Notes under the pieces: model-generated
Told to the model about the DNA's origin: nothing
The model's input: the letters and a program-made list of their open reading frames with translations, nothing else
Database searches by the model: none
Translations under genes and position numbers: made by a program
Shown here: in pieces, positions 47,072 to 64,000 of the stretch
Layout of the letters: each line of letters opens with the position of its first letter
Numbering within the stretch: position 1 is the stretch's first letter
Origin: Pararhizobium qamdonense
Lineage (GTDB): Bacteria; Pseudomonadota; Alphaproteobacteria; Rhizobiales; Rhizobiaceae
Direction: 5' to 3'
DNA: 64,000 nucleotides
Assembly: GCF_029277445.1 (NCBI RefSeq)
Contig: NZ_CP119566.1
Coordinates: 1,924,001 to 1,988,000 of the forward strand

Positions 47072-47082
47072 TGATTGCTGCC

Positions 47083-47391: not shown

Positions 47392-47810
47392 TGTCGGTTG
47401 AAAAGCTTGCCGGCCAAATGCCTTCGCCGGAAAACGGAGAAATGTTGAAACGAAGCGTTCGCCCTTTCACCGTATCGTACAAGGGCAAAAGCCGCCTGGT
47501 GGATCTTCCTGGATATTATCCAGCCGGAGATGGGGACGGTGTGCATGTCGGCAAGGATATGGACGTCGTGGACCAGGCTCTCAGGGAGATCAAGGAGGAA
47601 GTCGATGGACTTCCATCTCCCGCAACGATCCGTCGCATCCGTACCAAGCTCAAGCTTTCGCAGAGGGAGGCTGGGCAGATTTTTCGGGTCGGTGAAAGCG
47701 CTTTCGACAAATATGAGCGCGGGCTTATCGAACCAAGCGGCCCAACGATTCAGCTTTTCAGAATGTTGGACCGTCATCCGGAGCTCGTCGAGGATCTCCG
47801 GTCGTTTTGA
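47391..47810 (+). CDS. mqsA: MqsA-family antitoxin lacking zinc-finger cysteines
   Basis: A 139-residue antitoxin. The C-terminal DNA-binding domain is well conserved with MqsA/YgiT (IRRIRTKLKLSQREAGQIF, AFDKYERGLIEPSGPTIQLF, RMLDRHPELVEDLR). The N-terminal toxin-binding half keeps the outline of MqsA (PENGEMLKRSVRPFTVSYKGKSR ... DLPGYYPAGDGDGVHVG). Both CxxC zinc motifs of the E. coli protein are replaced, by MPSP and YPAGDG, so no zinc site remains and there is no cysteine in the whole protein. The pair is inserted between tdm and tmm. It is probably functional because both reading frames and the operator are intact. Confidence 0.9.
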   Translation: MSVEKLAGQMPSPENGEMLKRSVRPFTVSYKGKSRLVDLPGYYPAGDGDGVHVGKDMDVVDQALREIKEEVDGLPSPATIRRIRTKLKLSQREAGQIFRVGESAFDKYERGLIEPSGPTIQLFRMLDRHPELVEDLRSF

Positions 47811-47850
47811 TGGCGTAGAAGAGACGGATGCCTCTCCTACGCCATGACCA

Positions 47851-49188: not shown

Positions 49189-49257
49189 GTCTGTCTGTTC
49201 CCTTTGTTATGTCATGGTCAGTTTATTCGGTCGTTGCCGAATGTCTTTATGCCGTTT

Positions 49258-49373
49258 GCCCCTCACCCTAGCCCTCTCCCCGCAGGCGGGGAGAGGGGAC
49301 GACAGAGGTTGCCGCTTGTCCCTTCTCCCCGTGCACGGGGAGAAGGTGGCTGACAGGCCGGATGAGGGGCTTT
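49258..49373. repeat. RIME-like palindromic repeat between the dmm genes and tmm
   Basis: Same family as the 8.66 kb and 34.69 kb copies: CCCCTCACCCTAGCC, CTCTCCCCGC-AGGC-GGGGAGAG, then CTTCTCCCCGT-GCACGGGGAGAAG, and a closing GGATGAGGGGC. It fills most of the 191-bp gap and would lie in the transcript if tmm is read through from the dmm operon. Confidence 0.85.
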
Positions 49374-49379
49374 TTCAGT

Positions 49380-50420
49380 CTAATCCGGATAGATCCCCGC
49401 GCTTGTCGGCGCGCCGTCGTCATATTTCGCCAGCCAGTCGATCATGATCGGGCGGTTGCGGGTCAGGCCCTTGTAGTCGATGATTTCAGGGGGCAGGCTT
49501 TTCAGTACGCGCGGCAGGCGGCGGGCCCATTTCGGCACGGTGACCAGTTCGTCGAGGCTGATCAGGTAGCAGCGGATGACGAAGAGGATGGCGTTGGAAC
49601 GCGGCAGGCGCCACAGGCTCTGCAGTTCGACGCGCAGGTGCATTTTTTCGCCGACATTCTCCGGCGTCACGGTCAGGCGGTCGGGACCCCATTTGTGGTA
49701 GTTTTCCGGAGAGGTATCGAGCCTCGGATTGACGGTCATGGTCCAGTTGAGGCGCCGGGTCGGCTTTCCCTGCTGCAGGTTGAGCAGGAATTTCAGCGCC
49801 CGGTCGAAGACGCCGATCTGGTGGGCGAGCGGCACCGGGCCGTGCCATTCCATGAAGTTCATGCCGATATCGAAATCGAGCGACCAGTCGGCCTGGGTGG
49901 TGACCATGCCGGCATCCATCCACAGATTGTTGTCGCGCTGGTCCACGATGCAGAAATCGCCCTGCGCCTGGCGGGTGATATATTCCATCGGCGGGTAGGG
50001 AAGCGTGGAGGGATCGCCGAAGGTGAAGGTGTCGTCGATACCCAGCGGGCGGTTGATCCAGCGCCAGCGGTCGCCGGTCTTTGTCAGCGTGAAATGATCG
50101 GGATAGTCCTGCGCCTGATGCTCCATCAAGAGTTCCAGCACGTCCCATTGCGCCGCCATCATATGCGGCAGGGCCTGGCAGCGCAGCGGGTCTTCCTTCA
50201 GCACCATCTCCCGGTCCTGCATCTCGGCGACATAGTGCTCGTCAACGTCGATGAGGTTTTCAAAAACGCTATCGGCCTTGCCGCGGATATGCGGCTCCAT
50301 GTTGACGGAATACATGTATTCGTCGCGGTCGAAGGGGAAGGGAAAGCGCCTGATATTGGTAAGGCTGTTGCGGAAGGTGAAGTCGTCGCGGAACGTTTCG
50401 TTCCTGAACGTGATGGTCAT
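49380..50420 (-). CDS. Heme-dependent oxidative N-demethylase (DUF3445), dimethylamine monooxygenase catalytic subunit
   Basis: A 346-residue DUF3445 protein, the family of the heme-containing catalytic subunit of dimethylamine monooxygenase, which converts dimethylamine to methylamine and formaldehyde. Landmarks are RRFPFPFDRDEYMYSVNMEP at the N-terminus, DVLELLMEHQAQDYPDHFTL, FCIVDQRDNNLWMDAGMVTTQADWSL, and MNFMEWHGPVP. It is the third of three genes (DmmA-like, reductase, this one) in tight order. The gene is called dmmC or dmmD in different organisms, so no symbol is given. A gap of 33 bp from the reductase gene contains a GGGGGA ribosome-binding site. Confidence 0.92.
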   Translation of the reverse strand: MTITFRNETFRDDFTFRNSLTNIRRFPFPFDRDEYMYSVNMEPHIRGKADSVFENLIDVDEHYVAEMQDREMVLKEDPLRCQALPHMMAAQWDVLELLMEHQAQDYPDHFTLTKTGDRWRWINRPLGIDDTFTFGDPSTLPYPPMEYITRQAQGDFCIVDQRDNNLWMDAGMVTTQADWSLDFDIGMNFMEWHGPVPLAHQIGVFDRALKFLLNLQQGKPTRRLNWTMTVNPRLDTSPENYHKWGPDRLTVTPENVGEKMHLRVELQSLWRLPRSNAILFVIRCYLISLDELVTVPKWARRLPRVLKSLPPEIIDYKGLTRNRPIMIDWLAKYDDGAPTSAGIYPD

Positions 50421-50453
50421 CTGTCCGGTCCCCCTTCTATCTGTAAAAGATTG

Positions 50454-51419
50454 CTAGAGTTGAAGAACGAGTTGCTGGCCTTTGAACCGCGAGACGCAGA
50501 TCATGACCTTTCTGCCGGACGCTTTTTCCTCGTCCGACAGGTAGATATCATTGTGTTCCAGCGTTCCGTCGCAGGACGAGACTGCGGTTTCGCACTGGCC
50601 GCAGGCGCCGCCACGGCACATGTAGGGGGCGTCGCAGCCATGCGCTTCGGCCGCCTCCAGAATGCTCTGGTGTTCGCCAACGGTCATGTGGATGCCGGAT
50701 TTTTCGAGGAAGACCTGGAACGGCAGGCCGGCGGGTGGCGCCAGGAAGCGTTCCGAATGCAGGTTTTCCTTCGGCCATCCGGCTTTCAGCGCCGTCATCA
50801 GCACACCGTCGATCATGCCGGCCGGGCCGCAGACATAGAGATGCGTGCCCAGCGGCTGGTTGTCGGTGATGGCGGCCACGGGGATATAGCTCTTTTCCTC
50901 ATCCACATAGACCTTGATGCGGCGCGGGCCGTAGCGGTCGATGAGGTGCTGCCAATAGGCGCCGTGCGAGCGCGAGCGAATGGCGTAGTGCAGTTCGAAG
51001 GCGATGTTGTCGCGGCTGAACTGCTCCATCATCGCGATGAACGGGGTGATGCCGATGCCACCGGCAATCAGGATATGCTTGCGGCCGCGATGATCCGGCG
51101 CAAAGAGATTGACCGGTTGGCTGACGGTCAGCTGATCGCCGGGCTTAACCTGTTCATGCATGAAGACCGAGCCGCCGCGGGAATTGGGCACCCTGAGCAC
51201 GCTGATTTCATAGGCGCTGTTGTCGTCGGGATTGGACATCAGCGAGTAGGGATTGCGGCGTAAAAGGCCATTGTCGTTCATCGAGACGACGACGTGGGCA
51301 CCGCCGGAAAAGAACGGCATGGGATGACCGTCCAGCCGCTCGAAGCGGAAGCGTTTGACGAGATCGGTCACCGCAGTGACGTCAGCGACCCGGACGGGCA
51401 TGTCGGTGTTGAGGCTCAC
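50454..51419 (-). CDS. dmmB: Dimethylamine monooxygenase reductase subunit (FMN, NAD(P)H, 2Fe-2S)
   Basis: A 321-residue PDR/VanB-type reductase that would pass electrons from NAD(P)H to the heme subunit. The flavin motif is RRNPYSLMSNP, the nucleotide-binding motif AGGIGITPFIAMM, and the NAD(P) ribose region YVCGPAGMIDGVL. The C-terminal plant-type ferredoxin has the cluster ligands CRGGACGQC and a distal Cys in KVMICVSR. The start overlaps the stop of the DmmA-like gene (ATGA), so the two are translationally coupled. Confidence 0.92.
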   Translation of the reverse strand: MSLNTDMPVRVADVTAVTDLVKRFRFERLDGHPMPFFSGGAHVVVSMNDNGLLRRNPYSLMSNPDDNSAYEISVLRVPNSRGGSVFMHEQVKPGDQLTVSQPVNLFAPDHRGRKHILIAGGIGITPFIAMMEQFSRDNIAFELHYAIRSRSHGAYWQHLIDRYGPRRIKVYVDEEKSYIPVAAITDNQPLGTHLYVCGPAGMIDGVLMTALKAGWPKENLHSERFLAPPAGLPFQVFLEKSGIHMTVGEHQSILEAAEAHGCDAPYMCRGGACGQCETAVSSCDGTLEHNDIYLSDEEKASGRKVMICVSRFKGQQLVLQL

Positions 51420-52021
51420 GGGAACATCTCCTCAGGGGCAGGCGCCGTACCCGGTTCTTCTGCATCGATGTTGACGCCCTGGAAGGCGCCGAGACGTCTG
51501 GAATAGTGGTCGCGCACCAGGAGCGGCAAGCCGCAATGGCTGCAGGCAAAGGGGCTGGTGGTGACGTTATCGGTGATGCCCTTGCAATGCACGCATTGCA
51601 CCCGGCGCGCCGTCGAGCCGCGATGTTCGGTATGGATCGAGTTGAAATCGATGCCGAATTCCAGCGCCACCTGCATGATCTGGCCGATAAAGCCTTCTGT
51701 GCCGGCGATGTAGAGCCGCGTTCCCATCCGGGCCTGCTCCAGACAGGCGCGCAGGCGAAACAACAACGGCTGAAGTGTCGGCGCCTGCCAGAAGATGTCG
51801 GGCGACAGAGCCGAAAGAACCACGTCATAGGCTTTCGGTGCAGCGCCTGCGGCCAGATAGAGGATTTCCGATTTTGCCAGAAAATCCTTGCCCTTCAGGT
51901 CCACCTGGCCGGTGAGGGCGGCCGCCCCTTCGCCCTCGAGGACGAAGAGGTGGCGCTTTGCGTGGGGATCGATGTCGAGCCCCTTATATTCCGGCCTACT
52001 TTTGATCCCTTTTACGAGCAT
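51416..52021 (-). CDS. dmmA: Dimethylamine monooxygenase subunit DmmA-like
   Basis: A 201-residue protein of the DmmA family. The first 150 residues form a Rossmann-like reductase-type half (HLFVLEGEGAAALTGQVDL ... GTRLYIAGTEGFIGQIMQVALEFG). The end has a zinc-ribbon/rubredoxin-like pair of CxxC motifs (RRVQCVHCKGI, FACSHCGLPLLVRDHYSRRLGAFQG). The start ATG at 52021 is 4 bp after the GcvT stop; the longer frame from 52063 would overlap that gene. The position between gcvT and dmmB matches methylamine clusters of other proteobacteria. Confidence 0.88.
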   Translation of the reverse strand: MLVKGIKSRPEYKGLDIDPHAKRHLFVLEGEGAAALTGQVDLKGKDFLAKSEILYLAAGAAPKAYDVVLSALSPDIFWQAPTLQPLLFRLRACLEQARMGTRLYIAGTEGFIGQIMQVALEFGIDFNSIHTEHRGSTARRVQCVHCKGITDNVTTSPFACSHCGLPLLVRDHYSRRLGAFQGVNIDAEEPGTAPAPEEMFP

Positions 52022-52025
52022 GCCG

Positions 52026-53159
52026 TCAGCCTTGCGCCGTCCGTTTCGTCTTTTTCGGATCATCGAAGGTGATCGTGTGGGCGATCGCCGGTGCGTTGAC
52101 CGTCTTTCCCTTCACCTGGAGCTTGGTGCCCTGGACGGCATAGGGAACCTCGACGCGCATGATCGCCATCGAGCGGTTGGTGAGCTTGGAATAGGACGGG
52201 CAGGTGATGACGCCGACTTTTTTGTCGCCATCCCAGACTTCGTCGCCGAGATCGGCCGGTCCGTCGGCCTCGATCAGCAGGCCGAAGATCTTGAAGCGCT
52301 CCTTGCCTTTGAGGCGGGCATGTTCCTCGGCGCCGCGAAAACCGGTCTTACCGGGGCTGACGGTGAAATCGAGGCCGAGTTCCCACAGGCTGTCGCCGGG
52401 CTGCTCGTTGGCGAACGGATACATCTGCGAATTGTCGTAGGGATAGAACAGCAGGTAGCTTTCGACCCGCAGCATGTCGAGAACGCTGAAGCAGACGGGG
52501 ATGATGCCCATCTCCTTGCCTTCATCGACGATCCGGTCCCAGACCATGCCGGCATCCTGGCCGCGCACGAAGATTTCGTAGCCGCGTTCGCCGGTATAGC
52601 CGGTGCGCGAGATCATCACCGGGGCGCCGAACAGGGTCGTCTGCATATGGTGGAAATATTTGAGGTCGCGGATGCCGGGCACGTATTTTTCGAGATAATC
52701 GACGGCAAGCGGTCCCTGCAGTGACAGGTCATGCAGGTCGTCGTCGAACAGCACGGCGCAATTGCGGCCCTGTGCCTGCTTGACGATTTCCTCAAAACCG
52801 GAGCCCGAGCCATGCACCAGCATCCAGGAATTCGGGCCGGTGCGGTAGACGATGCAATCGTCGGTAAAATGGCCGCGATCGTTCAGCATGCAGGCATAGA
52901 CGGACTTGCCGGGATAGACCTTCGTCATGTCGCGGGTGGTGATATATTCCAGGATGGCAATCGCATGCGGGCCGACCAGATGCACCTTCTTCAGGCCGGA
53001 AACATCCATGATGCCGGCCTTGGTGCGCACGGCAATGTGTTCTTCGGAAATATCCTTGTCATAGGTCCAGGCGGTTCCCATGCCGCTCCAGTCTTCAAGA
53101 TTGGACCCCAATGCCCGATGCCGATCGCCCAGGGCGGAGAAACGCCAGCTAAGTGCCAT
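52026..53159 (-). CDS. GcvT-family aminomethyltransferase linked to dimethylamine oxidation
   Basis: A 377-residue folate-binding protein of the glycine-cleavage T family. Segments are IMDVSGLKKVHLVGPHAIAILEYI, GKSVYACMLNDRGHFTDDCIVYR, MISRTGYTGERGYEIFVRGQD and a C-terminal GVITCPSYSKLTNRSMAIMRVE. It is the first gene of the gcvT-dmmA-dmmB-DUF3445 operon. Genes of this type in methylamine clusters are thought to move formaldehyde released by demethylation onto tetrahydrofolate. It is not the housekeeping T-protein, since gcvH and gcvP are absent. Confidence 0.9.
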   Translation of the reverse strand: MALSWRFSALGDRHRALGSNLEDWSGMGTAWTYDKDISEEHIAVRTKAGIMDVSGLKKVHLVGPHAIAILEYITTRDMTKVYPGKSVYACMLNDRGHFTDDCIVYRTGPNSWMLVHGSGSGFEEIVKQAQGRNCAVLFDDDLHDLSLQGPLAVDYLEKYVPGIRDLKYFHHMQTTLFGAPVMISRTGYTGERGYEIFVRGQDAGMVWDRIVDEGKEMGIIPVCFSVLDMLRVESYLLFYPYDNSQMYPFANEQPGDSLWELGLDFTVSPGKTGFRGAEEHARLKGKERFKIFGLLIEADGPADLGDEVWDGDKKVGVITCPSYSKLTNRSMAIMRVEVPYAVQGTKLQVKGKTVNAPAIAHTITFDDPKKTKRTAQG

Positions 53160-53440: not shown

Positions 53441-53689
53441 TCAGGCGAGCAGGCCTTCTTCCTTCATGGCGGCGATGAACGAGGCCCAGGCTTTCTGCGG
53501 GCTGCGGATGCCGTCGAGGGCGTCCAGGCAATGTTGCAGGGCGCGGCGATAGGCAAGGCCACGCTTGCCGGTCCAGCGGCGCAGGAATTCCACGGCGTCC
53601 CAGGCGGTCGCGATGATGTTTTCCTGGCTCTGCTGGATGACCACTCTGACGGGGGTTGGAAAGCGTTTGTAACTCAACGTCGTCCTCAT
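53441..53689 (-). CDS. DUF982 domain protein
   Basis: An 82-residue DUF982 protein, a small family found almost only in Rhizobiales and often present in many copies. The domain covers nearly all of it: RFPTPVRVVIQQSQENIIATAWDAVEFLRRW, then KRGLAYRRALQHCLDALDG and a closing PQKAWASFIAAMKEEGLL. Function is unknown. The start at 53689 (MRTTLSYKRF) is used because the upstream 42 residues of the open frame are unlike the family. It ends at a clear terminator. Confidence 0.88.
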   Translation of the reverse strand: MRTTLSYKRFPTPVRVVIQQSQENIIATAWDAVEFLRRWTGKRGLAYRRALQHCLDALDGIRSPQKAWASFIAAMKEEGLLA

Positions 53690-53819
53690 GCTGCTTCTTG
53701 AAATTGCAGCACTCAAACGTGCGGGATTCAAGAAGGTTCCAACGGCGGATTCATTTTGGAATCTGCTTGTGAAAGCATGTTCTGAACCACGGCTGAGGCG
53801 TCTTTGATGAACCACGGGA

Positions 53820-54056
53820 TCAGCGCATCGCGCGCATCCGCTCGACCCAGTCAGCCCCGATCTGCCATCGCGTCAGCACATCCAGCGGGTCCTCCGCATC
53901 AAGCCGCGAACAGATGCGATAGACCTCCAGAACCTCGGCACTCATCTCGCCGCGATGATAGATAAAGGTGGCGGCGGCATAGCGGGTGCGGCCGGACCAT
54001 GCGATGCCCAGCGGAGTTTTAATCAAATCCCAGTTCTGGCGTGTTTCCTCGTCCAT
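53820..54056 (-). CDS. Small conserved-looking protein at the end of the flavoprotein operon
   Basis: A 78-residue protein starting at 54056 (MDEETRQNWDLIKTPLGIAW), 10 bp after the stop of the second GcvT-family gene and therefore probably the last gene of that operon. The sequence is soluble and mixed alpha/beta, with SGRTRYAAATFIYHRGEMSAEVLEVYRIC and a terminal DVLTRWQIGADWVERMRAM. I do not recognise a family. It could be a small accessory subunit of the oxidoreductases encoded upstream. The ORF is also open further upstream to 54095, overlapping the GcvT gene. Confidence 0.6.
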   Translation of the reverse strand: MDEETRQNWDLIKTPLGIAWSGRTRYAAATFIYHRGEMSAEVLEVYRICSRLDAEDPLDVLTRWQIGADWVERMRAMR

Positions 54057-54066
54057 ATCGCAACCG

Positions 54067-55287
54067 TCAGAACTGAGCGGGCGGGGAAGCGGCACGGCGG
54101 TCGAGCTTGATGAAAGGGCGCGGCACGATGCGGGCGCGTTTCATCATCTTTTGATATTGCAGTTCGCGCGACGCGTAGATTTCCACCCAGAGATCTTCGG
54201 TCAGACGCGTGCCATAGGGCCGGGTCAGGCTGGCGATGGCGATGTTGCGCTTGGCAAGCGGCGACCAGATTGCGGCACTGACGAGGCCGGCCTCATGCTT
54301 TTTCCGGTGATAGAGGATGGCGCCGTCAGCCGGAATATTGCCTTCAATTTCAAGGCCGACGAGCACATGTTTGAGAGATTGATTCCGCCTGGCTTCAAGT
54401 ATCGCTTGACGTCCGTTGAAGGTGATTTTTTGCGCATCGACCAGCCAGTCCAGCCCGATCTCGTCGGGCATGCGGGCGCGGTCGGCGCGCAGCGCCGTCT
54501 CCGCCGTCATGAAATCGGCATTGGCGACGATGAATCCCGCTTCGATGCGGGCGCGGTTGAGTGCGGCATAGCCGATGGCGCGGATGCCGTGAAGCTGTCC
54601 TGCCGTCCAGAGGCGATCCCACAGGCTGAGCGCGGCATCAGCGGGGACGAACAGTTCGTAGCCGAGATCGCCGGTAAAGCCGGTGCGCGAGATGGTGACC
54701 GTGCCGCCCTCATGCGTGAAGTCTGCGAGCTGGAAGGGTTTCAGCCGTTCGATGCCGTCGAAGCCGGCTTTGGACAGGACCGCGAATGACGTTGGGCCCT
54801 GCAGGGCAAGCCCGGCGATCTCAGCCGTTTCTTCCGCGACGGTAACGTCAAAGCCGATGGCGCTGTCGAGCAGCCAGGGCAGGTGGCGCTCCTGGCAGCA
54901 GAGGCGAAACGTATCGGGCGCGAGCCGGAACAGCGTGCCATCATCAAGCACATGACCGTGGTCGTCGCACCAGGCGGTGTAGTGGACGCGGCCGGTGCCG
55001 AGCTTTGAGACATCGCGCACGGTCAGCCGGTTGAGATAGCGCTCGGCATCCGGCCCGGCGATGCGGTATTTCACCATCGGCGAAATATCGAACAGCGCCG
55101 ATGTCGAGCGGATGGCGAAATATTCCAGTTCCTCGTCGAAGACCGAATGCGGCGCCTTGTAGCCGGACCAGGTGTACCAGTCGCTGGTTTCGCTGAGGGC
55201 TGCGATGCGCGGATGAAACGGGGTCTCGAAGCGTGGCGTGGCAATATGGCTCTGCAGGGCGCGGCGAGTGTTGATCTCCAGCATCAT
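54067..55287 (-). CDS. GcvT-family aminomethyltransferase of the flavoprotein operon
   Basis: A 406-residue folate-binding GcvT-family protein, distinct from the one at 52026. Typical segments are SDWYTWSGYKAPHSVFDEELEYF, RYLNRLTVRDVSKLGTGRVHYT, TISRTGFTGDLGYELFVPADA and GLVSAAIWSPLAKRNIAIASL. The start overlaps the stop of the upstream flavoprotein gene by 4 bp, so translation is coupled. In demethylating systems such proteins accept one-carbon units from N-methyl oxidation. That suggests the operon oxidises an N-methylated or similar compound, but the substrate cannot be named. Confidence 0.9.
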   Translation of the reverse strand: MMLEINTRRALQSHIATPRFETPFHPRIAALSETSDWYTWSGYKAPHSVFDEELEYFAIRSTSALFDISPMVKYRIAGPDAERYLNRLTVRDVSKLGTGRVHYTAWCDDHGHVLDDGTLFRLAPDTFRLCCQERHLPWLLDSAIGFDVTVAEETAEIAGLALQGPTSFAVLSKAGFDGIERLKPFQLADFTHEGGTVTISRTGFTGDLGYELFVPADAALSLWDRLWTAGQLHGIRAIGYAALNRARIEAGFIVANADFMTAETALRADRARMPDEIGLDWLVDAQKITFNGRQAILEARRNQSLKHVLVGLEIEGNIPADGAILYHRKKHEAGLVSAAIWSPLAKRNIAIASLTRPYGTRLTEDLWVEIYASRELQYQKMMKRARIVPRPFIKLDRRAASPPAQF

Positions 55288-56879
55288 GATCTCTCCGAAA
55301 GAATGTGGCGCGCGGCGAGCAGTCCCGGCAGGCCGGAAATGCCGCCGCCAGGATGCGAACCGGCACTGGCGAGGTAGAGGCCGGACAGCGGCGTCGAATA
55401 GCCGGCCGCCGCATTGACCGGGCGGTTGACCAGCAGCTGATCGGCCTGCAGTTCGCCATGATGCCAGTGGCCGCCGGGCAGATGATACTGGGTTTCCATA
55501 TCGGCCGGTGTCATCAGCTGGCGTCCGGTGATGCTCTTGCTCAAGCCCGGCGCGTAGCGCTCCAGCGTGTCGAGGATGATCTTTTCGAAGGCCGGTTTGC
55601 CATTGTCCCAGCCGCCCTTCAGATCATAGGGCGCAAATTCCACCAGGGCGGACAGCGTCGCGCCGCCGGGGGGCGCGAGTGCGGGATCGGCAAGGCTCGG
55701 CAGGGTGATCTCCATCACGGGATCGGGAGAGAATTCACCATATTTGGCCGGGTTGAAGGCATTTTCGACATGGGCGATGGAGCGGGCGATGACCAGCCGG
55801 CCGCGATGGTCATCCGGCGAAACGCCGGTGAAGGCGGGCTGCCGGTCGAGCGCCAGATCGAGCTTGGCGACATTGCCTTTCGAGCGGATATTGCCGACGG
55901 CGCGGACAAAGCCTGTGCCGAGTTCGGCTGCGTCGCAGAGGTTCAGGAATGTCGCCTGCGGATGGATGGCGCAGATGATAACGGGTGCATTCAGCTGTTC
56001 GCCGTTGGCGAGCACGACGCCGGTTGCGGTGCCGCGATCGGCGAGGATGTGCGCGGCATGGGCGCCCGTGCGGATGACGGCTCCGGCAGCGGTTGCGGCC
56101 TTTTCGAACGCCGGGGCAAGGATGCTCATGCCACCCTGCGGCACGCATTGCGCGCCCGTCTTGCCGCCCGTTTCGCCGGTCAGACGGTAATAGAGGCCGA
56201 GAAGAGAGGTCGGTGATCGCGGCCCGAGATGGATGCCGAGCGTGGCGTCGAAGGCAACGAGACCTTTGAGGCGGTCGTCGCTCAGATATTCGTCGGCGAC
56301 ATCGGCGACATTCATCAGGAGCATGCGCAGGAAGTCGCGGCCTTCCTCGCGGCCTTTGGTAATGAGGCTGAGGCCCGCGCCTGCAAAGGCGCCGAGGTCA
56401 CGCATCCCGACATGGCCGATCTCCGGCGGCCGGCGCTTGAGGAAGCGTTTGAGAATGCCCGCCTGGAACATCAGCTTCTTGCGCATGGCCGCAAAGGCCT
56501 TCGCTTCTGCCGGGCTGACGCCGTCGACTGTCTCGCCATAGGCACCACGCAGGACGGCGTGCCTGCCATCCGGCGAGAGCGCCACGGTCGGCAGGGACGC
56601 GCCGGAGGTTTTGGCGGCCTTCAGCTTCAGCAGGTCCTCGACCTCCGGATCGAGCCGGTTGACGATATGGGCGAGGCCGGCGGAGCGGTAGCCGGGATGG
56701 AATTCAAAGCCGCGCATCGCGCCGCCGGTGCTGTCGGCGGCTTCGAGAACGACGACCCTGCGGCCGTTCTGCGCCAGCAGCGTGGCCGCCGTCAGGCCGT
56801 TATGGCCGCCGCCGATGACGATGGCATCGAAGTCTGCGGCGTTGAAATCCGTGGTCCGGGCGAGATCAGATGACGTCAT
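55284..56879 (-). CDS. Phytoene-dehydrogenase-like FAD oxidoreductase 1
   Basis: A 531-residue flavoprotein with the GG-doublet FAD motif IVIGGGHNGLTAATLLAQNGRRVVVLE near the N-terminus, after an 18-residue leader. The C-terminal flavin-binding region is SGLYLASAGSHPGGGISGLPG. This belongs to the NAD(P)/FAD-dependent group that includes phytoene desaturases and vertebrate PYROXD2. It overlaps the previous flavoprotein gene by 14 bp and the GcvT gene by 4 bp. There are no carotenoid genes around, so a carotenoid role is unlikely. An amine or polyamine-derived substrate is favoured by context. Confidence 0.9.
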   Translation of the reverse strand: MTSSDLARTTDFNAADFDAIVIGGGHNGLTAATLLAQNGRRVVVLEAADSTGGAMRGFEFHPGYRSAGLAHIVNRLDPEVEDLLKLKAAKTSGASLPTVALSPDGRHAVLRGAYGETVDGVSPAEAKAFAAMRKKLMFQAGILKRFLKRRPPEIGHVGMRDLGAFAGAGLSLITKGREEGRDFLRMLLMNVADVADEYLSDDRLKGLVAFDATLGIHLGPRSPTSLLGLYYRLTGETGGKTGAQCVPQGGMSILAPAFEKAATAAGAVIRTGAHAAHILADRGTATGVVLANGEQLNAPVIICAIHPQATFLNLCDAAELGTGFVRAVGNIRSKGNVAKLDLALDRQPAFTGVSPDDHRGRLVIARSIAHVENAFNPAKYGEFSPDPVMEITLPSLADPALAPPGGATLSALVEFAPYDLKGGWDNGKPAFEKIILDTLERYAPGLSKSITGRQLMTPADMETQYHLPGGHWHHGELQADQLLVNRPVNAAAGYSTPLSGLYLASAGSHPGGGISGLPGLLAARHILSERS

Positions 56880-58485
56880 GGGCCGGGCTCATTTCTGAAG
56901 GTTTCAGTTTCAGGTCGCGCAGGATTTCCGCGGCGGCATTGCGGCCGGGCGCTCCCATGACGCCGCCGCCGGGATGGGTGGAGGAGCCGCAGAGATAGAG
57001 GCCAGGCACCGGCGTGCGGTATTGCGCGTAACCGGGCACCGGGCGGTTGAACAGCAACTGATCGAAGGTCAGCTCCCCTTGGAAGATATTGCCTTCGGTG
57101 AGGCCAACCTCCGCCTCGATCTCGCGCGGCGTGCGCACTTCCATATGCAGGATGCGGTCGCGGAAGCCGGGGGAATAATCGGCGATCTGGCTGACGACGG
57201 TCTCGGCAAAGGCGTCGCGGTCGGCATCGGTCCAGTCGCGGCCTTCCAGTTGCGGCGGGCAATATTGCACGAAACAGCTCATGAAATGCTTGCCCGGCGG
57301 CGCCATGGTCGGATCGAGCGTCGTCGGGATGACCATATCGACGAAGGGATCGGCGGAATAGCGGCCAGCCTTCCAGTCGTCATAGGCGCGTTCCATCCGC
57401 TCCATCGAATCGGTGAAATGCAGATCGCCGCGAATGCAGGAGGAATTCTTCGGCAGCGCCGGAAATTCGGGCAGGCTGTCGAGTGCGATATTGAGCTTGC
57501 CGGACGAGCCGCGCATTTTGAAGTGCTTGACGCGGTGGACGAAGGCTTCGGGCAGGGCATCCTCCTCGACCAGCTTGAGGAAGGTGCGCTTGACGTCGGC
57601 ATTGGAGACCACGAGATTGCCGCGCACCTCCTCGCCATCGGCCAGCACGACGCCGGTGGCGCGGCCGCTGCGGGTCATGACGCGGGCGACATCGGCGCCG
57701 GTGCGGATCGTGCCGCCCGATGCCTTGAAGGAGGAGGCAAGCGCCTGCGTCACCGCGCCCATGCCGCCGCGCGCATAGCCCCAGGCGCCGACGGAGCCAT
57801 CGACTTCGCCCATGTAGTGATGCAGGAGCACGTAAGCCGTGCCGGGCGACATCGGCCCAAGCGCCGTGCCGATAATGCCCGACAACGCCAGATAGGCCTT
57901 GATGACGTCGGTCTCAAAATATTCGTCGAGGAAGTCAGAGATCGACATGGTCCAGAAGCGCAATGTCTGCGCCATGTCATGGGCGGAGAATTCGCCGAGT
58001 TTTTTGCCGAGATAGAGCAGCTCGGAAATGTCGCGCGGCTTGAAGGAAAACGGGTCCGGTGCGGTGCGCATCAATAGCGGCTGGATGAAACGGCATTGGC
58101 GGGTGACGTCGCGGGCGTAGCGGTCATAGGCTTCGGCATCGCGCTTGGAATAGCGGGCGAATTCGCGGCGGTGGCTGTCATGGTCGCGGTAGGAGGCGAT
58201 ATAGTCGCCGTCGCGGGTAAAGACCGCGCCGCCTTCATAGGCGATGACCTGCAGCCCGTGTTTCGGCAGCTCGAGGTCGCGCATGATTTCTGGGCGAAAC
58301 AGCGAGCAGACATAGGAGCAGTTGGAGTAGAGGAAGCCCGGCGTCAACTCGCGGCTGGTGGCCGCACCGCCCACCCAATCGTTCTTTTCGAGCACCAGCA
58401 CATCAAGCCCGGCGCGCTGCAGATAGCAGGCCGCGACCAGGCCGTTATGGCCGCCTCCGATCATCACCACATCGTATTTCTTCAT
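56866..58485 (-). CDS. Phytoene-dehydrogenase-like FAD oxidoreductase 2
   Basis: A 539-residue relative of the adjacent flavoprotein. The FAD motif is VVMIGGGHNGLVAACYLQRAGLDVLVLEKN at the very start, with a matching C-terminal GLYLCGSSTHPGGGVMGAPGRNAA. A central block LSGIIGTALGPMSPGTAYVLLHHYMG is shared in outline with PYROXD2-like enzymes. It is the first gene of the operon, with an AT-rich palindrome 62 bp upstream and a BetI-like regulator divergent. The two paralogues may form a heteromer or act on successive steps. Confidence 0.9.
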   Translation of the reverse strand: MKKYDVVMIGGGHNGLVAACYLQRAGLDVLVLEKNDWVGGAATSRELTPGFLYSNCSYVCSLFRPEIMRDLELPKHGLQVIAYEGGAVFTRDGDYIASYRDHDSHRREFARYSKRDAEAYDRYARDVTRQCRFIQPLLMRTAPDPFSFKPRDISELLYLGKKLGEFSAHDMAQTLRFWTMSISDFLDEYFETDVIKAYLALSGIIGTALGPMSPGTAYVLLHHYMGEVDGSVGAWGYARGGMGAVTQALASSFKASGGTIRTGADVARVMTRSGRATGVVLADGEEVRGNLVVSNADVKRTFLKLVEEDALPEAFVHRVKHFKMRGSSGKLNIALDSLPEFPALPKNSSCIRGDLHFTDSMERMERAYDDWKAGRYSADPFVDMVIPTTLDPTMAPPGKHFMSCFVQYCPPQLEGRDWTDADRDAFAETVVSQIADYSPGFRDRILHMEVRTPREIEAEVGLTEGNIFQGELTFDQLLFNRPVPGYAQYRTPVPGLYLCGSSTHPGGGVMGAPGRNAAAEILRDLKLKPSEMSPAHDVI

Positions 58486-58870
58486 GCCTCTGTCTCCCTC
58501 ATTGCGAAAAATCTGGCATGAAAAGCAGAATGTTGTCCAGTTATATTGAATGAATATTCAGCAAGTATGTTGCAATCCTCTGATAATGCGATAGGATTTC
58601 GTGTCAAAGGCCATGCGGTGGACATGACGGGATGATCGAAACCTCGATGCGGGAAACGGGATATGGCCAGGCAGGCGCATCGGGCTCCGGTTTGGTGATC
58701 GCGCGACTGTCTGCGTCCGGGCAGGCATGCGGCTCCGTGACCGTGAAGACGGCGCGCACGGGCTATCCTGGAACGGGCATCCGCAGCTTCAAAGCCAAGC
58801 AGAAGGTTCTTGACACCGGGCCGCATTGTCGCGCTCATCTGCCCGGTGAAAAACCGGGCGGGAGCGCATC
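58486..58870. promoter_or_regulatory. Divergent control region between the flavoprotein operon and the BetI-like gene
   Basis: 385 bp holding no convincing gene. Close to the flavoprotein operon lies TGAATGAATATTCA (58547-58560), an inverted repeat with TGAAT/ATTCA arms. It resembles the TTGAA...TTCAA type of site used by BetI-family repressors. The part nearer the regulator is GC-rich and featureless to my reading. Confidence 0.55.
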
Positions 58871-59572
58871 ATGAGCGTCGTTCTCAGCCTGAAGGGCAAG
58901 AAGGTAACGGTGAGAATGAAGGCAGTGTCTGCGGCTGAAACCGGCGAAAACGAAAGGCGTGGCCGCAAGGCTTCGAAGGAAACACGGCGCCAGCAGCTGG
59001 TCGAGGCAACGATCGATTCGCTTGCCAAGCGCGGCTATTCCGAAACGACGCTGGCCGATGTCGCCGATGGCGCCGGCCTGTCGCGCGGCATCGTCAATTT
59101 TCATTTCGAGAGCAAGGAAAAGCTCTTGATTGCCACGCTGCAATTCATGGCCGACGAATATGCGGCGCATTGGGGCGCGGCACTCGATAAAGCGGGCGCG
59201 GCGGCATCCTCGCAGCTCTGGGCGCTGGTGGCGGCCGATTTCGACCGCAAGATCTGCACCAAGCGCAAGCTGGCCGCCTGGTGCGCCTTCTGGGGCGAGG
59301 CGAAATCGCGGCCGACCTATCAGGCGCTCTGCGGCGCCCGCGACACCAAGTACCAGGAGCTGTTCGTGGCGCTCTGCGCGCAGATGAAGGCCGAGGCATC
59401 CTATACATATGACGCCGAAACCATCGCGCTGGCGCTCAGCGCCATGATGGAAGGCCTGTGGTTCCGGCTGATGATGGGCGATGGGCTGACGCGCGAAAAG
59501 GCCCATGCGGCGGCAATCGAATATCTGGTCTCGGTCTTTCCGGGCCATATGACCCATCAGGGTCCGAAATAG
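58871..59572 (+). CDS. BetI-like TetR-family regulator
   Basis: A 233-residue TetR regulator. The helix-turn-helix is ETRRQQLVEATIDSLAKRGYSETTLADVADGAGLSRGIVNFHFESKEKL (about residues 37-85), and together with AAWCAFWGEAKSRPTYQALC it fits the BetI subgroup. BetI itself represses choline-to-betaine genes, but no betAB genes are present, so the effector is probably another amine. The ATG at 58871 is used; an ATG at 58916 would give a more standard N-terminus. It precedes the binding-protein gene by 31 bp. Confidence 0.9.
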   Translation: MSVVLSLKGKKVTVRMKAVSAAETGENERRGRKASKETRRQQLVEATIDSLAKRGYSETTLADVADGAGLSRGIVNFHFESKEKLLIATLQFMADEYAAHWGAALDKAGAAASSQLWALVAADFDRKICTKRKLAAWCAFWGEAKSRPTYQALCGARDTKYQELFVALCAQMKAEASYTYDAETIALALSAMMEGLWFRLMMGDGLTREKAHAAAIEYLVSVFPGHMTHQGPK

Positions 59573-59603: not shown

Positions 59604-60686
59604 ATGCGGATAATGGGAATGGTCAGGGATTTGGGCAGGGCCGCGTTGCTGGCCTCGCTGCTGTCCGGCGCGGCGTTTACGGCGCGCGCCGCCGACAATA
59701 TCACCGTCTTTGATTGGTCCGGCTACGAGGATCCGGCCTTCCACCCGGCCTATACCGCAAAGCACGGCACGGAACCGGATTTCAGCTTCTTCGGCGATGA
59801 GGAAGAGGCGTTCCAGAAGTTGCGCTCCGGCTTCAAGGCCGACCTTGCCCATCCCTGTTCGCAGAGTGTCAACAAGTGGCGTGAGGCAGGGCTGATCGAG
59901 CCGCTCGATACGTCCAAGCTGACCGGGTGGAACGATATCCTGCCCGGCATCAAGGCGATGAAGGGCCTGATGACCTCTGATGACGGCACGGCCTGGTTCC
60001 TGCCGTTCGAGTGGGGCAATACGGTTCTGACCTATCGCACCGACACGGTGAAGCCGGAAGAAGTCCAGTCGCTGAAGGCGTTTGCCGACCCGAAATTCAA
60101 GGACCGCGTTTCGATCGGCGACAATGTCGATGATGCCTATGCGCTGGCGAGCCTTGCGATTGGCCTCAAGGACTGGACGAAGATGACCGATGCGCAGTTT
60201 GCGGAAGCTTCCGCTTTTCTGCGCGAGGTGCACAAAAATGTCCGCCTCTACTGGACCGACAATACCGAAGTCAGCCAGGCGATGGCGAGCGGCGAGGTCG
60301 ATCTCGCCTGGGCCTGGAACGAGACCGTGACGACGCTGCAAAAAGATGGCGTGCCGGCCGACGTCAAGCGGGACACGACGGAAGGGCTGTCCACCTGGGT
60401 CTGCGGCTATGTCCGCCTGAAGGGGGCGGAGGGCGACGCGGACAAACAATATGATTTCCTGAATTCGATCAGCGATCCGGCCATCAGTACGTACCTCGTC
60501 AATGACTGGGGTTACGGCCATGCCAATGCCAAGGGCATGGCTGCGGTGGACCCGAAGATCCTTGTGGCGAAAGGATATGCGGATGTCGATAAATTCGTCG
60601 ACAAGACGCTGTTCCAGTCGCCGATGCCGATCGAGCTGCGTCAGAAGATGATTGCCGAATTCGAGAAGATCAAGGCGGGCTATTGA
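59604..60686 (+). CDS. Polyamine-type periplasmic binding protein
   Basis: A 360-residue PotD/PotF-like solute-binding protein. The signal peptide ends near residue 30 (LLSGAAFTARAADN). The mature part starts ITVFDWSGYEDPAFHPAYTA and contains FFGDEEEAFQKLRSGFKADL, WFLPFEWGNTVLTYRTD, and VDLAWAWNETVTTLQKDG, all of this family. Ligand-contact aromatic residues are abundant, as in polyamine and betaine binders. It has the ATPase and permeases as a separate convergent operon (61945-64000). Its stop overlaps the amine oxidase start. Confidence 0.93.
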   Translation: MRIMGMVRDLGRAALLASLLSGAAFTARAADNITVFDWSGYEDPAFHPAYTAKHGTEPDFSFFGDEEEAFQKLRSGFKADLAHPCSQSVNKWREAGLIEPLDTSKLTGWNDILPGIKAMKGLMTSDDGTAWFLPFEWGNTVLTYRTDTVKPEEVQSLKAFADPKFKDRVSIGDNVDDAYALASLAIGLKDWTKMTDAQFAEASAFLREVHKNVRLYWTDNTEVSQAMASGEVDLAWAWNETVTTLQKDGVPADVKRDTTEGLSTWVCGYVRLKGAEGDADKQYDFLNSISDPAISTYLVNDWGYGHANAKGMAAVDPKILVAKGYADVDKFVDKTLFQSPMPIELRQKMIAEFEKIKAGY

Positions 60687-61981
60687 GCGGATATGATGCA
60701 GATGTGATTGTCGCCGGGGCCGGTTTTGCCGGCCTTTCGGCGGCCGATGCCCTGGTGTCGGCCGGTCTCGATGTGATCGTGCTGGAAGCCCGTGATCGTG
60801 TTGGCGGCAGGGTGGAGGCCTCGGCGTTTGCCGATGGCGTTGCGATGGATACCGGCGGGCAGTTTATCTGCGACGAGATGCCGAATGTCATGGCCTTGAC
60901 GCGGCGGTTCAACTTGCCTTTGGCGGAGACGCCGCTGGACGGCGCCTTTCTCGTTGAGCCGCAACCGTTTGAGGCCGGGTCGTCCTTTGCGGAATCCGGC
61001 CGCATCCGCGCCCGTGCCAACCGGATCGATCCGCGCGATCCCGCTATTTCGGGGCTCACGGCGGGGGAATGGCTGGCGCGCCAGAGCGATCCGCCCGGCG
61101 CAAAAGCCAGCTATCAGGCGATGGTCGAGGGCCTCTGGTGCCGGTCGATGAGCGAAATCCCGCTCTGGTACCTGATCGACAATGACAGGCGTACGATCAG
61201 CAACGGCAACGAGCTGCAATATTTCGCCGAGGGTACGATCCATGCTGCGGCCGAAGCACTGGCGGCAACGCTGGGCAAGCGCCTGCGGCTTGAGGCGCCG
61301 GTGTTTCGCATAGGCCGCAGCGAGGGTTCGGTGTCGGTGACAACAGGCGCGGGCGGCGTCTTAACCGCGCGGCAGGTGATCATTGCCGTGCCGCCGGTGA
61401 TGGCTTCGCGCATCGCGCATGTGCCCGATCTCCCCCATGCGCTGAACGGCGCTCTGAGCGCCTGGAAAAGCGGCACGGTGATCAAGGCGCTGGTGCGCTT
61501 TGAGCGGCCGTTCTGGCGTGATCGCGGACTGAGCGGCATGGTGATGTGGCGCGATACGCTGGGGCTTTTCGCCTGCGATGTCAGCAGCCGGCAGGCGTCG
61601 GCGCTGGTGATGTTTGCCGGTGGGCCGGTTGCCGTCGAATGGAGCGCGAAGGGACACGCCTTCATCGAGGCGGAAATCCGCCGCCGGCTGGTGGCGGCGC
61701 TGGGTCCGCAGGCCGCTGCGGTGACGGGGCTGTTGATCCGCGATTGGGTCGGCGATCCCTGGAGCGGCGGTGGCTATAGCGATGTGATCACGGATCTCCA
61801 GGCCTATGATGCCGAAGACATTCTGCGCGCCGGTGCGCCGCCGGTGCATTTTGCCTCGTCGGAGCTATCCCCGTCATTCCCCGCCTATATCGAGGGCGCC
61901 ATCGTTGCCGGACGGGACGCCGCCATGCGGGTGATTGCAGCGCATCAATCGGCCATCGCCACCAGCGCATCCGGATCATAG
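60683..61981 (+). CDS. Flavin monoamine oxidase family protein
   Basis: A 432-residue FAD amine oxidase. The dinucleotide-binding motif is VIVAGAGFAGLSAADALVSAGLDVIVLEARDRVGGR (residues 8-43). Further support comes from FAEGTIHAAAEALA, MVMWRDTLGLFACDVSSRQASALVMFAGG, and the C-terminal FASSELSPSFPAYIEGAIVAGRDAA. A TTG start overlapping the binding-protein stop by 4 bp (TTGA) is the only one that keeps the FAD motif intact. It probably oxidises the amine imported by the neighbouring transporter. Its last 37 bp overlap the 3' end of the convergent ATPase gene. Confidence 0.88.
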   Translation: MSGYDADVIVAGAGFAGLSAADALVSAGLDVIVLEARDRVGGRVEASAFADGVAMDTGGQFICDEMPNVMALTRRFNLPLAETPLDGAFLVEPQPFEAGSSFAESGRIRARANRIDPRDPAISGLTAGEWLARQSDPPGAKASYQAMVEGLWCRSMSEIPLWYLIDNDRRTISNGNELQYFAEGTIHAAAEALAATLGKRLRLEAPVFRIGRSEGSVSVTTGAGGVLTARQVIIAVPPVMASRIAHVPDLPHALNGALSAWKSGTVIKALVRFERPFWRDRGLSGMVMWRDTLGLFACDVSSRQASALVMFAGGPVAVEWSAKGHAFIEAEIRRRLVAALGPQAAAVTGLLIRDWVGDPWSGGGYSDVITDLQAYDAEDILRAGAPPVHFASSELSPSFPAYIEGAIVAGRDAAMRVIAAHQSAIATSASGS

Positions 61982-63033
61982 GCAAGGCGGATCGGCGCGC
62001 CGACCGGAATATCGTCCGCGCCGAAATTATTAGTTTCCGACACGGATAGCGGTTTTTCGAGGCCCGGCACATCGACGATCAGGTGGGTGATCTCGCCAAA
62101 GTAATGACGGTCCACCACATGGCCGGTCACCTCGCAATCGGCCTTGGCATCGTCCCACAGCACCCGCAGGCGTTCCGGGCGAATGCCGATGGTGGCCTCA
62201 CCGTTCTCAGCGGTAAAACCCTTGGGCTTGGCGATGGTGACATTGCCGAAACGGGTGGTCTCGACGGAGAGGTTGAGAGCGCTTTCACCGGTGATCTTCG
62301 CCCGCATGAAATTCATGCCGCCGAGAAAATCCGCGACCTGCCGGGTGAGGGGACGCTGGTAGATTTCCTTGGGCGTCGCCACCTGGGCAATCTTGCCGCC
62401 GAACATCACGGCGATCCGGTCCGACATGGCGAGCGCTTCGTATTGATCATGGGTGACCAGAACGAAGGTGATGCCCACGGCTTTTTGCAAGGTGCGCAGC
62501 TCGACCTGCATTTCCTCGCGCAGCTTCTTGTCGAGCGCCGACAGCGGCTCGTCGAGCAAAAGCACCTTCGGCCGCATCACCAGCGCCCGTGCAAGCGCGA
62601 CGCGCTGGCGCTGGCCGCCGGACAGTTCATGGGCTTTGCGTTTGCCAAGATGCGAAAGCCGCACCTGTTCCAGTGCATTGCCGACACGCTGGCGTTCGTC
62701 GCTTGCGTTCAGTTTCAGGCGCTTGAGGCCGTAGCCGACATTATCCTCGACATTCAGATGCGGGAAGATCGCATAGTTCTGGAAGACCATGTTGGTCGGC
62801 CGCTTGTTGGGCGGCAGGTCGATGGCCGAATGGCCGTCGATGCGGATGTCTCCTGATGTCGGCGTGTCGAAGCCGGCGATCGAGCGCAAAAGGGTGGTCT
62901 TGCCGCAGCCGGATGGTCCCAGCAGGGAGAAGAATTCGCCGGCGGCAATGTCGAGGCTGACATTGTCGAGCGCGCGATAGATGCCGTAATAGCGGCTGAC
63001 GTCATCGATCTCGATCATGGGTGTATCAGCCAT
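61945..63033 (-). CDS. Polyamine-type ABC transporter ATP-binding protein (PotA-like)
   Basis: A 362-residue importer ATPase. Walker A is GPSGCGKTT, the Q-loop MVFQNYAIFPHLNV, the signature LSGGQRQRVALARALVM, Walker B VLLLDEPLSALDKKL, and the switch His in VLVTHDQYEAL. A TOBE domain fills the C-terminus (ATIGIRPERLRVLW). It is convergent with the amine oxidase gene and overlaps it by 37 bp. The permease stop overlaps its start by 8 bp. With the 59604 binding protein it would form a complete amine or polyamine importer. Confidence 0.95.
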   Translation of the reverse strand: MADTPMIEIDDVSRYYGIYRALDNVSLDIAAGEFFSLLGPSGCGKTTLLRSIAGFDTPTSGDIRIDGHSAIDLPPNKRPTNMVFQNYAIFPHLNVEDNVGYGLKRLKLNASDERQRVGNALEQVRLSHLGKRKAHELSGGQRQRVALARALVMRPKVLLLDEPLSALDKKLREEMQVELRTLQKAVGITFVLVTHDQYEALAMSDRIAVMFGGKIAQVATPKEIYQRPLTRQVADFLGGMNFMRAKITGESALNLSVETTRFGNVTIAKPKGFTAENGEATIGIRPERLRVLWDDAKADCEVTGHVVDRHYFGEITHLIVDVPGLEKPLSVSETNNFGADDIPVGAPIRLAYDPDALVAMAD

Positions 63034-63850
63034 GGGCGGCGGCTCCAGCTTTGAGGCGGTTTTCCGCGCGGCGGCGCAGGATTTCGGCGGTGGCGACCAG
63101 GAGGATCGACAGGGCGATCATCAGGCTTCCGAGCGCCAGCACGCTTGGCAGCTTGGCGGCAAAGCGCAGCTGTCCCCAGATATAGACCGGCAGCGTCGGC
63201 TCCGTGCCCGACAGGAAGAAGGCGAGGATGAACTCGTCGAGCGAAATGGTGAAGGAGACGAGCAGGCTGGAGATGATGGCCGGCGCCACCACCGGCAGCG
63301 TCACCCGGCGGAAGGTGCCGATGGCGGTTTCCCCGAGGTCGAGCGAGGCTTCCTCCAGCGAACGGTCGAAGCCATCAAAGCCGGAAATCAGCACCGACAG
63401 CGCATAGGGCAGGCAAAACACCGTCTGGCCGAGAATGACCGTGACCAGCGACAGTTCCAGGCCGAGCTGCAGCACGATCATCAGCAGCGATACGGCCACG
63501 ATGATCTCGGGCAGAAACAGCGGCGCCATCAACAGGCCTGTCGCTGCGCGCTGGCCGCGGAACTTGTAGCGGGTGACGGCGCGGGCGGCGCAGATGGCAA
63601 GACCGGTTGACAGGATTGAGACGCAGATGCCGACGATCAGGCTGTTGCGCGCGGCCGCCAGCATCGCCGCATTGCCCCAGAGCGAGGCGTACCATTTGGT
63701 GGTGAAGCCGGCGAGCGGGAAGGTGGTGGAGGCCGCATTGTTGAACGAGAAGATCGGCAAAAGCAGGATCGGCAGATAGAGAAAGACAAGGTAAGCCGAC
63801 ACATAGACCGGCAGCCAGCGGGATTTTCGAATGCCGTGACGGCCGCTCAT
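63026..63850 (-). CDS. Polyamine-type ABC transporter permease (PotC-like)
   Basis: A 274-residue inner-membrane permease with about six helices (first: VYVSAYLVFLYLPILLLPIF). The ATPase-contact loop is EEASLDLGETAIGTFRRVTLPVVAPA. A conserved early SFNNAASTTFPLAGFTTKWY is typical of PotC. The start overlaps the stop of the upstream PotB-like gene as ATGA, and its own stop overlaps the start of the ATPase gene. Confidence 0.94.
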   Translation of the reverse strand: MSGRHGIRKSRWLPVYVSAYLVFLYLPILLLPIFSFNNAASTTFPLAGFTTKWYASLWGNAAMLAAARNSLIVGICVSILSTGLAICAARAVTRYKFRGQRAATGLLMAPLFLPEIIVAVSLLMIVLQLGLELSLVTVILGQTVFCLPYALSVLISGFDGFDRSLEEASLDLGETAIGTFRRVTLPVVAPAIISSLLVSFTISLDEFILAFFLSGTEPTLPVYIWGQLRFAAKLPSVLALGSLMIALSILLVATAEILRRRAENRLKAGAAAHG

Positions 63851-64000
63851 TTGATCCGCCTCACGAATAGCTTCAGCGCCAGCACCATGCAGCCGGCCAT
63901 GGCCGAAACGATCACCATCGTTGTGACAGAAAGGGCTGCGCCAAGCGGCCAGTTGGCCCCCTTGCCGAACTGCGCCTGGATGGCGGTGGCGATCATCACG
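63847..64000 (-). CDS. Polyamine-type ABC transporter permease (PotB-like), C-terminal part
   Basis: Only the last 50 or so residues lie in the window; the gene continues beyond position 64000. The visible end reads AIQAQFGKGANWPLGAALSV, then a final transmembrane helix (VSAMAGCMVLALKLF) and a basic tail RRIK before TGA. This is typical of the last helix of PotB-like permeases. The stop overlaps the PotC-like start (ATGA). Confidence 0.85.
   Translation of the reverse strand, partial: VMIATAIQAQFGKGANWPLGAALSVTTMVIVSAMAGCMVLALKLFVRRIK

What the first reader, a model, noticed from the sequence alone, without database searches (positions are those of the whole stretch)
53820..58485. Unassigned operon of two PYROXD2-like flavoproteins, a GcvT protein and a small protein
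Two phytoene-dehydrogenase-like oxidoreductases overlap by 14 bp and are coupled by ATGA to a GcvT-family folate protein and then a 78-residue unknown. A flavin oxidase plus folate acceptor is the logic of N-demethylation (as in sarcosine or dimethylglycine oxidation), but these flavoproteins are from another family. A BetI-like regulator, polyamine-type importer and amine oxidase flank them. I know of no characterised pathway with this composition, so it may be a new amine-demethylation system.
Basis: partly seen in the sequence, partly recalled or inferred. Interest (0 to 1): 0.8.

Follow-up and report, generated by a model that had tools for sequence, protein, structure and literature searches.

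The report
Conserved amine-demethylation regulon, substrate unknown
Soil and marine alphaproteobacteria share a tightly regulated gene set that most likely imports an N-methylated amine and strips its methyl groups onto folate using an unusual pair of flavin enzymes; the amine itself is not yet known.

Summary
On the minus strand flavA (56866-58485), flavB (55284-56879), gcvT (54067-55287) and a 78-residue protein (53820-54056) form one operon. Of 80 related loci (the closest found), 78 keep flavA-flavB-gcvT in order and direction, and 79 keep the small gene behind gcvT.

The system is larger than the window. A class III aminotransferase and a GbcA/CntA-like Rieske oxygenase lie 1-4 kb past the right edge and share a palindromic operator with flavA: TGAAYNNNCATTCA occurs at 5 places in the 6.24-Mb genome, 3 in this cluster. 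In 91 genus-level genomes of the family, all 20 with flavA also have both genes.

Best reading (confidence 0.6): the Rieske enzyme, then FlavAB plus GcvT, remove methyl groups from an imported N-methylated amine (CH2 to tetrahydrofolate), and the aminotransferase takes the freed amine. GcvT keeps its main folate-site residues; the flavoproteins have the CrtI/amine-oxidase fold, not that of known folate-coupled demethylases.

Against a simple story: three related genomes keep the core without flavA; the small protein tracks that core; most relatives also carry an N-methyltransferase, eroded here. Substrate unknown; no activity tested.

The parts
56866..58485 (-). flavA, 539-aa FAD-dependent oxidoreductase, CrtI/amine-oxidase fold
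   Evidence: 56-98% identity to 20 chosen relatives
55284..56879 (-). flavB, 531-aa paralogue of flavA (33% identity); FAD motifs kept, but H222-H223 of flavA replaced by mostly Tyr and always Arg
54067..55287 (-). gcvT-like, 406-aa folate-binding aminomethyltransferase, nearest to the C-terminal half of TMAO demethylase
53820..54056 (-). 78-aa conserved protein, five predicted helices, no Pfam or NCBIfam family and no significant fold match
58547..58560 (-). operator core TGAATATTCATTCA, 62-75 bp upstream of flavA
   Evidence: pattern in 77 of 78 upstream regions, 0 of 15600 shuffles; one site in the 64-kb window
58764..58871 (+). remnant (C-terminal 36 residues) of an N-methyltransferase gene that is full length in 66 of 80 related loci
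   Evidence: (61% identity); no comparable copy in this genome
58871..59572 (+). BetI-like TetR regulator, 233 aa
59604..60686 (+). PotD-like solute-binding protein of the importer
60683..61981 (+). monoamine-oxidase-like flavoprotein, matched in 56 of 80 related loci within the held flank
61945..63033 (-). PotA-like importer ATPase
63026..63850 (-). importer permease (BPD_transp_1), called PotC-like here
63847..64000 (-). 3' end of the PotB-like permease; the rest, the aminotransferase (L086:3019-4431 +) and the Rieske oxygenase (L086:4514-5746 -) lie past the window edge

Best explanation
flavA, flavB and gcvT encode a folate-coupled oxidative N-demethylase made of separate subunits. It works inside one BetI-like regulon that also holds an ABC importer, a Rieske oxygenase and a class III aminotransferase. 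Proposed order: import of an N-methylated amine; first demethylation of a quaternary nitrogen by the Rieske enzyme where one is present; oxidation of a remaining N-methyl to an N-methylene iminium by a FlavA/FlavB pair; transfer of that carbon to tetrahydrofolate by GcvT; transamination of the resulting primary amine to an aldehyde. Shown here: gene order, co-occurrence, shared operator, fold classes and kept folate-site residues. Inferred: the chemistry, the order of steps, FlavA-FlavB pairing, regulation by the BetI-like protein, and the substrate class.
For: Conserved, overlapping operon. GcvT residues aligned with T. maritima Asp96 and Glu195 are Asp in 89 of 92 rows (Glu in 3) and Glu in 92 of 92; Arg247 in 92 of 92 (80 of the rows are the closest relatives; residue roles recalled). 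Best sequence relatives of GcvT are TMAO demethylase and aminomethyltransferases. In a class-wide draw of 289 genomes, 9 (own included) have this GcvT at E 1e-60 and all 9 have a flavB-like gene next to it, one at only 27% identity. FlavA and FlavB each form one side of a branch in a 55-row tree. The FlavA model matches carotenoid desaturases and amine oxidases such as NicA2 and MAO (mean pLDDT only 72.6). In 91 genus-level genomes of the family, all 20 flavA genomes have the Rieske enzyme (24 in all) and the aminotransferase (22 in all), hypergeometric p about 2e-16 and 4e-18 if genomes were independent; Rieske and flavA lie on one contig within 25 kb in 20 of 20, the aminotransferase in 19 of 20 (not G669). 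The pattern TGAAYNNNCATTCA has 5 places in 6.24 Mb, 3 of them upstream of flavA, at the Rieske gene and between potB and the aminotransferase; the looser base was chosen after seeing the third site, and with the first pattern it is 2 of 3 places. The Rieske motif C-x-H/C-x-x-H is in 9 of 9 proteins looked at; those scanned are closest to glycine betaine and carnitine monooxygenases. An aminotransferase of one of two kinds is in 6 of 8 distant loci (4 genera; the other 2 are contigs under 5 kb).
Against: No activity, complex or substrate was tested. Three genomes (L116, L117, L118) keep Rieske enzyme, aminotransferase (another kind in L118), methyltransferase, BetI-like regulator, importer and small protein, with no flavA, flavB or gcvT match in the 16-19 kb read and no FlavA at 1e-200 in the genome, so the module is not essential to the core. 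The flavoproteins are not from a family in which N-demethylation is established (recalled). Relatives carry an N-methyltransferase (18 of 91 genomes, all 18 with the Rieske gene; 15 of the 20 flavA genomes), which a pure demethylation pathway does not need. The position of T. maritima Tyr188 is Phe in 91 of 92. Distant loci L096, L097, L099, L100, L101 and L103 show no Rieske match in the stretch read.
Confidence: 0.6

Rival explanations
1. GcvT takes a methyl group directly from an onium compound to THF, as DmdA does with DMSP, and the two flavoproteins carry out a separate desaturation or amine oxidation in the same pathway.
For: The GcvT family includes direct methyl transferases (DMSP demethylase and vanillate/syringate O-demethylase models match below their cut-offs); one relative cluster (L099) has a DMSP-demethylase-like protein next door (349 bits, cut-off 410).
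Against: gcvT is next to flavB in 9 of 9 class-wide hits and overlaps it here; the Asp used in CH2 transfer (role recalled) is kept in 89 of 92.
Confidence: 0.15
2. The flavoproteins are amine or polyamine oxidases and GcvT is only a scavenger of formaldehyde made elsewhere, for example by the Rieske enzyme.
For: Importer and aminotransferase resemble polyamine genes; one distant cluster (L096) has a PuuC-like aldehyde dehydrogenase and a glutamine-synthetase-like protein related to glutamylputrescine synthetase; a MAO-like gene is in 56 of 80 loci.
Against: gcvT goes with flavAB, not with the Rieske gene: L116-L118 have the Rieske enzyme without gcvT in the stretch read. The PotD-like protein has Cys where E. 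coli PotD has Asp in 77 of 77.
Confidence: 0.15
3. The operon is a further arm of the neighbouring trimethylamine pathway (TMAO permease, Tdm, Tmm, Dmm genes at 42557-53159).
For: Direct neighbour; the permease, Tdm, Tmm and one Dmm subunit reach curated NCBIfam cut-offs and the haem-type subunit its Pfam cut-off.
Against: Within the held flank dmmD is in 5 of 80 related loci and tmm in 3 of 80; the operator pattern is found once in the window, at flavA, and not at the tmm/dmm genes.
Confidence: 0.05

Closest known systems
Dimethylglycine dehydrogenase/oxidase and heterotetrameric sarcosine oxidase (SoxBDAG)
   Same: Flavin oxidation of an N-methyl coupled to a GcvT folate domain (recalled); their GcvT parts match this GcvT.
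   Different: Their flavoprotein is of the DAO family (recalled) and GcvT is fused to a larger chain; here two CrtI/amine-oxidase-type proteins and a free GcvT.
TMAO demethylase (Tdm)
   Same: Its C-terminal half is the closest match to this GcvT (245 bits in NCBIfam; 34% identity to the copy at 44637-47006).
   Different: Tdm has a DUF1989 domain and no partner flavoprotein.
Dimethylamine monooxygenase (Dmm)
   Same: Separate GcvT-like subunit in an N-demethylation operon, next door in this window.
   Different: Haem-dependent oxygenase (PF11927), not a pair of FAD oxidoreductases; the two GcvT-like proteins share 29% identity.
CrtI/CrtO carotenoid desaturase family
   Same: Best profile matches and nearest solved folds.
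   Different: Scores far below the curated cut-offs; genome context is amine catabolism.
Glycine betaine and carnitine Rieske oxygenases (GbcA, CntA)
   Same: The Rieske proteins of the regulon match these best.
   Different: Scores far below the GbcA cut-off; substrate unknown.

Membership tests
GcvT/aminomethyltransferase fold family | PF01571 above gathering score | tested here: met
   197 bits against 25.6; the C-terminal barrel PF08669 is just below (24.7 against 25.9)
GcvT/aminomethyltransferase fold family | folate-site Asp and Glu kept | tested here: met
   Asp116 in 89 of 92, Glu211 in 92 of 92; but the Tyr188 position is Phe in 91 of 92; roles recalled
Glycine-cleavage T protein (GcvT equivalog) | TIGR00528 cut-off 235.85 bits | tested here: not met
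   150 bits
TMAO demethylase Tdm | NF053776 cut-off 1100 bits, DUF1989 domain | tested here: not met
   245 bits, only the C-terminal half; a real Tdm is at 44637-47006 (1256 bits)
DMGDH/sarcosine oxidase type folate-coupled oxidase | DAO-family flavoprotein fused or paired with GcvT | tested here: not met
   best Pfam match of FlavA and FlavB is Amino_oxidase; DAO matches only 58 and 37 residues at the FAD motif
DMGDH/sarcosine oxidase type folate-coupled oxidase | oxidative N-demethylation to methylene-THF | not testable with these tools
   needs enzyme assay
crtI family (TIGR02734) | cut-off 238.1 bits | tested here: not met
   135 and 109 bits; fold match of FlavA to 4rep TM 0.74
BetI repressor | TIGR03384 cut-off 201.3 bits; NF001978 cut-off 118 bits | tested here: not met
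   119.4 and 116.6 bits, the second a near miss
PotD spermidine/putrescine-binding protein (NF007048) | cut-off 582 bits | tested here: not met
   79 bits; Cys for Asp in 77 of 77
Glycine betaine monooxygenase GbcA (NF058607) | cut-off 670 bits | tested here: not met
   136 bits for the own Rieske protein, N-terminal half only
Phosphoethanolamine N-methyltransferase family (relatives' methyltransferase) | best sequence similarity to solved PMT enzymes | tested here: met
   E 4e-38 to 5wp4; none of the NCBIfam models shown reached its cut-off; substrate not tested

The most novel reading that the evidence does not exclude
The pathway passes through an N-methylated intermediate that it makes itself: the cluster's methyltransferase methylates the imported amine, and the Rieske enzyme and FlavAB-GcvT then strip the methyls again, so that methylation serves as activation or sorting of the amine before catabolism. 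FlavAB-GcvT would be a further, independently evolved class of flavin/folate N-demethylase within it.
Probability: 0.1. Interest if true: 0.85.

Novelty: new variant of a known kind. Interest (0 to 1): 0.6.

Why it matters
If right, N-demethylation onto folate arose independently in the carotenoid-desaturase/amine-oxidase fold, and a soil and marine regulon for an unrecognised N-methylated nutrient can be assigned. The operator, the importer and three promoters make inducer screening direct, so the open question (which amine) is testable with reporter strains.

Tried and rejected
Reading the operon as part of the TMA pathway: set aside on neighbourhood counts and operator. Reading the importer as evidence for polyamines: weakened by the Asp-to-Cys position. 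Small protein as dedicated partner of GcvT: rejected, since it stays with the core where gcvT is missing (L116, L117, L118), and a homologous stretch is the N-terminal part of a 283-aa protein with a DMSP-lyase-family cupin in Fuscovulum. Its model (pLDDT 96.4) has no significant fold match (best E 2.5). Paper searches: 10 of 10 used, of an open-licence library; I saw listings and abstract starts, and passages only of PMC13390433 and PMC12445004. Substrate guesses (butyrobetaine-like, N-methylated diamines, methylated ethanolamines) could not be separated. The tree has one very long row, B_L102, whose place is unsure.

Genomes G037, G165 and G263 are one genus. The hypergeometric values treat related genomes as independent. 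The operator test used the window and 77 of 80 loci (L017, L045 and L063 left out for want of a full upstream stretch or flavA); shuffles kept base composition only. Four of the 24 Rieske matches carry read-through stops in the match. The family is called Rhizobiaceae from its named relatives, not from a call.
Full report
What is there. On the minus strand four genes overlap or nearly touch: flavA 56866-58485, flavB 55284-56879 (14-bp overlap), gcvT 54067-55287 (4-bp overlap) and a 78-aa gene 53820-54056 (10-bp gap). Divergent on the plus strand follow a BetI-like TetR regulator, a PotD-like binding protein and a MAO-like flavoprotein; then, minus strand, importer ATPase and permease genes. 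The nearest named relative found is Rhizobium sp. Root483D2 (98% identity in GcvT).

Conservation. In 80 related loci, tblastn finds flavB and gcvT in 80, the small gene in 79, flavA and betI in 78, potD in 77, a methyltransferase in 69, the MAO-like gene in 56. flavA-flavB-gcvT keep order and direction in 78 of 80; the 14-bp overlap is exact in 73 of 78 measured. In an even draw of 289 genomes of the class, 9 (own included) carry this GcvT at E 1e-60 or better and each has a flavB-like neighbour, one of them at only 27% identity. In 398 genomes of the phylum FlavA is found at 59% identity or more in 11 (own included), and the next best is 46%.

The system beyond the window. Just past the right edge lie potB, a class III aminotransferase and a Rieske oxygenase. 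In 91 genus-level genomes of the family FlavA is in 20 (E 1e-200), the Rieske enzyme in 24 (1e-100), the aminotransferase in 22 (1e-180), the methyltransferase in 18 (1e-50). All 20 FlavA genomes have both Rieske enzyme and aminotransferase; all 18 methyltransferase genomes have the Rieske enzyme, and 15 of the 20 FlavA genomes have the methyltransferase. Annotated plasmids show the set without the methyltransferase in Shinella zoogloeoides and Rhizobium sp. SL42, and variants of it in Fuscovulum ytuae (with methyltransferase) and Parasedimentitalea marina.

One regulon. Upstream of flavA the palindromic element TGAAYNNTCATTCA is found in 77 of 78 stretches of 300 bp (window and 77 loci), against 0 of 15600 shuffled sequences. 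A matrix built from it finds a site at the Rieske gene (32 bits; it overlaps the start of the longest possible reading frame, so the true start is probably further in) and one between potB and the aminotransferase (14.5 bits) in the own genome, with like sites in L121, L083, L085 and L120; L081, L082 and L096 have no strong site. In the whole own genome TGAAYNNNCATTCA occurs at five places, three of them these promoters; the control pattern gives none. That such sites resemble the BetI operator is recalled, not tested.

Chemistry. The GcvT is closest to the folate half of TMAO demethylase and keeps Asp116, Glu211 and Arg247, though one Tyr of the glycine-cleavage enzyme is Phe. FlavA and FlavB are 33% identical, each one side of a branch in the tree, both with FAD motifs; where FlavA and 11 of 11 background relatives have His-His, FlavB has Tyr in 20 of 22 and Arg in 22 of 22, so the two are likely to have different jobs. 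FlavA's model resembles carotenoid desaturases and amine oxidases. A flavin oxidation, a folate acceptor and an aminotransferase on a primary amine, with a Rieske N-demethylase-like enzyme in the same regulon, make stepwise demethylation of an N-methylated amine the best reading. It is inference from composition.

What does not fit. Genomes G664, G705 and G735 keep the core without flavA and with no flavA, flavB or gcvT match in the stretches read. The small protein goes with that core; no solved fold matches it and a homologous stretch opens a cupin protein of the DMSP-lyase family. The methyltransferase, closest to phosphoethanolamine N-methyltransferases among solved structures, is full length in 66 of 80 loci, but in this window only a C-terminal remnant is left at 58764-58871 and the genome has no comparable copy. 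Why an N-methyltransferase sits in a demethylation regulon is open.

Verdict. A real, conserved and apparently co-regulated system, larger than the finding; the demethylation reading is likely but untested, the substrate unknown. It would work like the folate-coupled demethylases, but it fails the membership tests of TMAO demethylase and of the DMGDH/sarcosine-oxidase type.

Noticed in passing
window 42557-53159: Trimethylamine pathway next door: TMAO permease, Tdm, Tmm and a DmmA-family subunit above NCBIfam cut-offs, a HODM-type haem subunit, a ferredoxin-reductase-like protein and a GcvT-like protein.
   Followed up: partly
window 58764-58871 (+): Remnant of an N-methyltransferase gene that is full length in 66 of 80 related loci.
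   Followed up: yes
L086:13723-18656 (+), past the window: Two adjacent proteins of 829 and 815 aa with fused GcvT domains (SoxA/DMGDH-like), and a Rieske-like match at 19096-19710: a further possible methylamine cluster about 8 kb beyond the Rieske gene.
   Followed up: no
L081:28647-29498: Small-protein homologue as N-terminal part of a DMSP-lyase-family cupin protein in Fuscovulum ytuae.
   Followed up: partly
L045: Mesorhizobium camelthorni locus has no flavA and lacks the start of flavB but keeps gcvT and the small gene.
   Followed up: no
L096, L098: Distant clusters with a glutamine-synthetase-like protein related to glutamylputrescine synthetase; L096 also has a PuuC-like aldehyde dehydrogenase.
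   Followed up: no
window 53441-53815 (-): DUF982 protein between the operon and the dmm genes.
   Followed up: no
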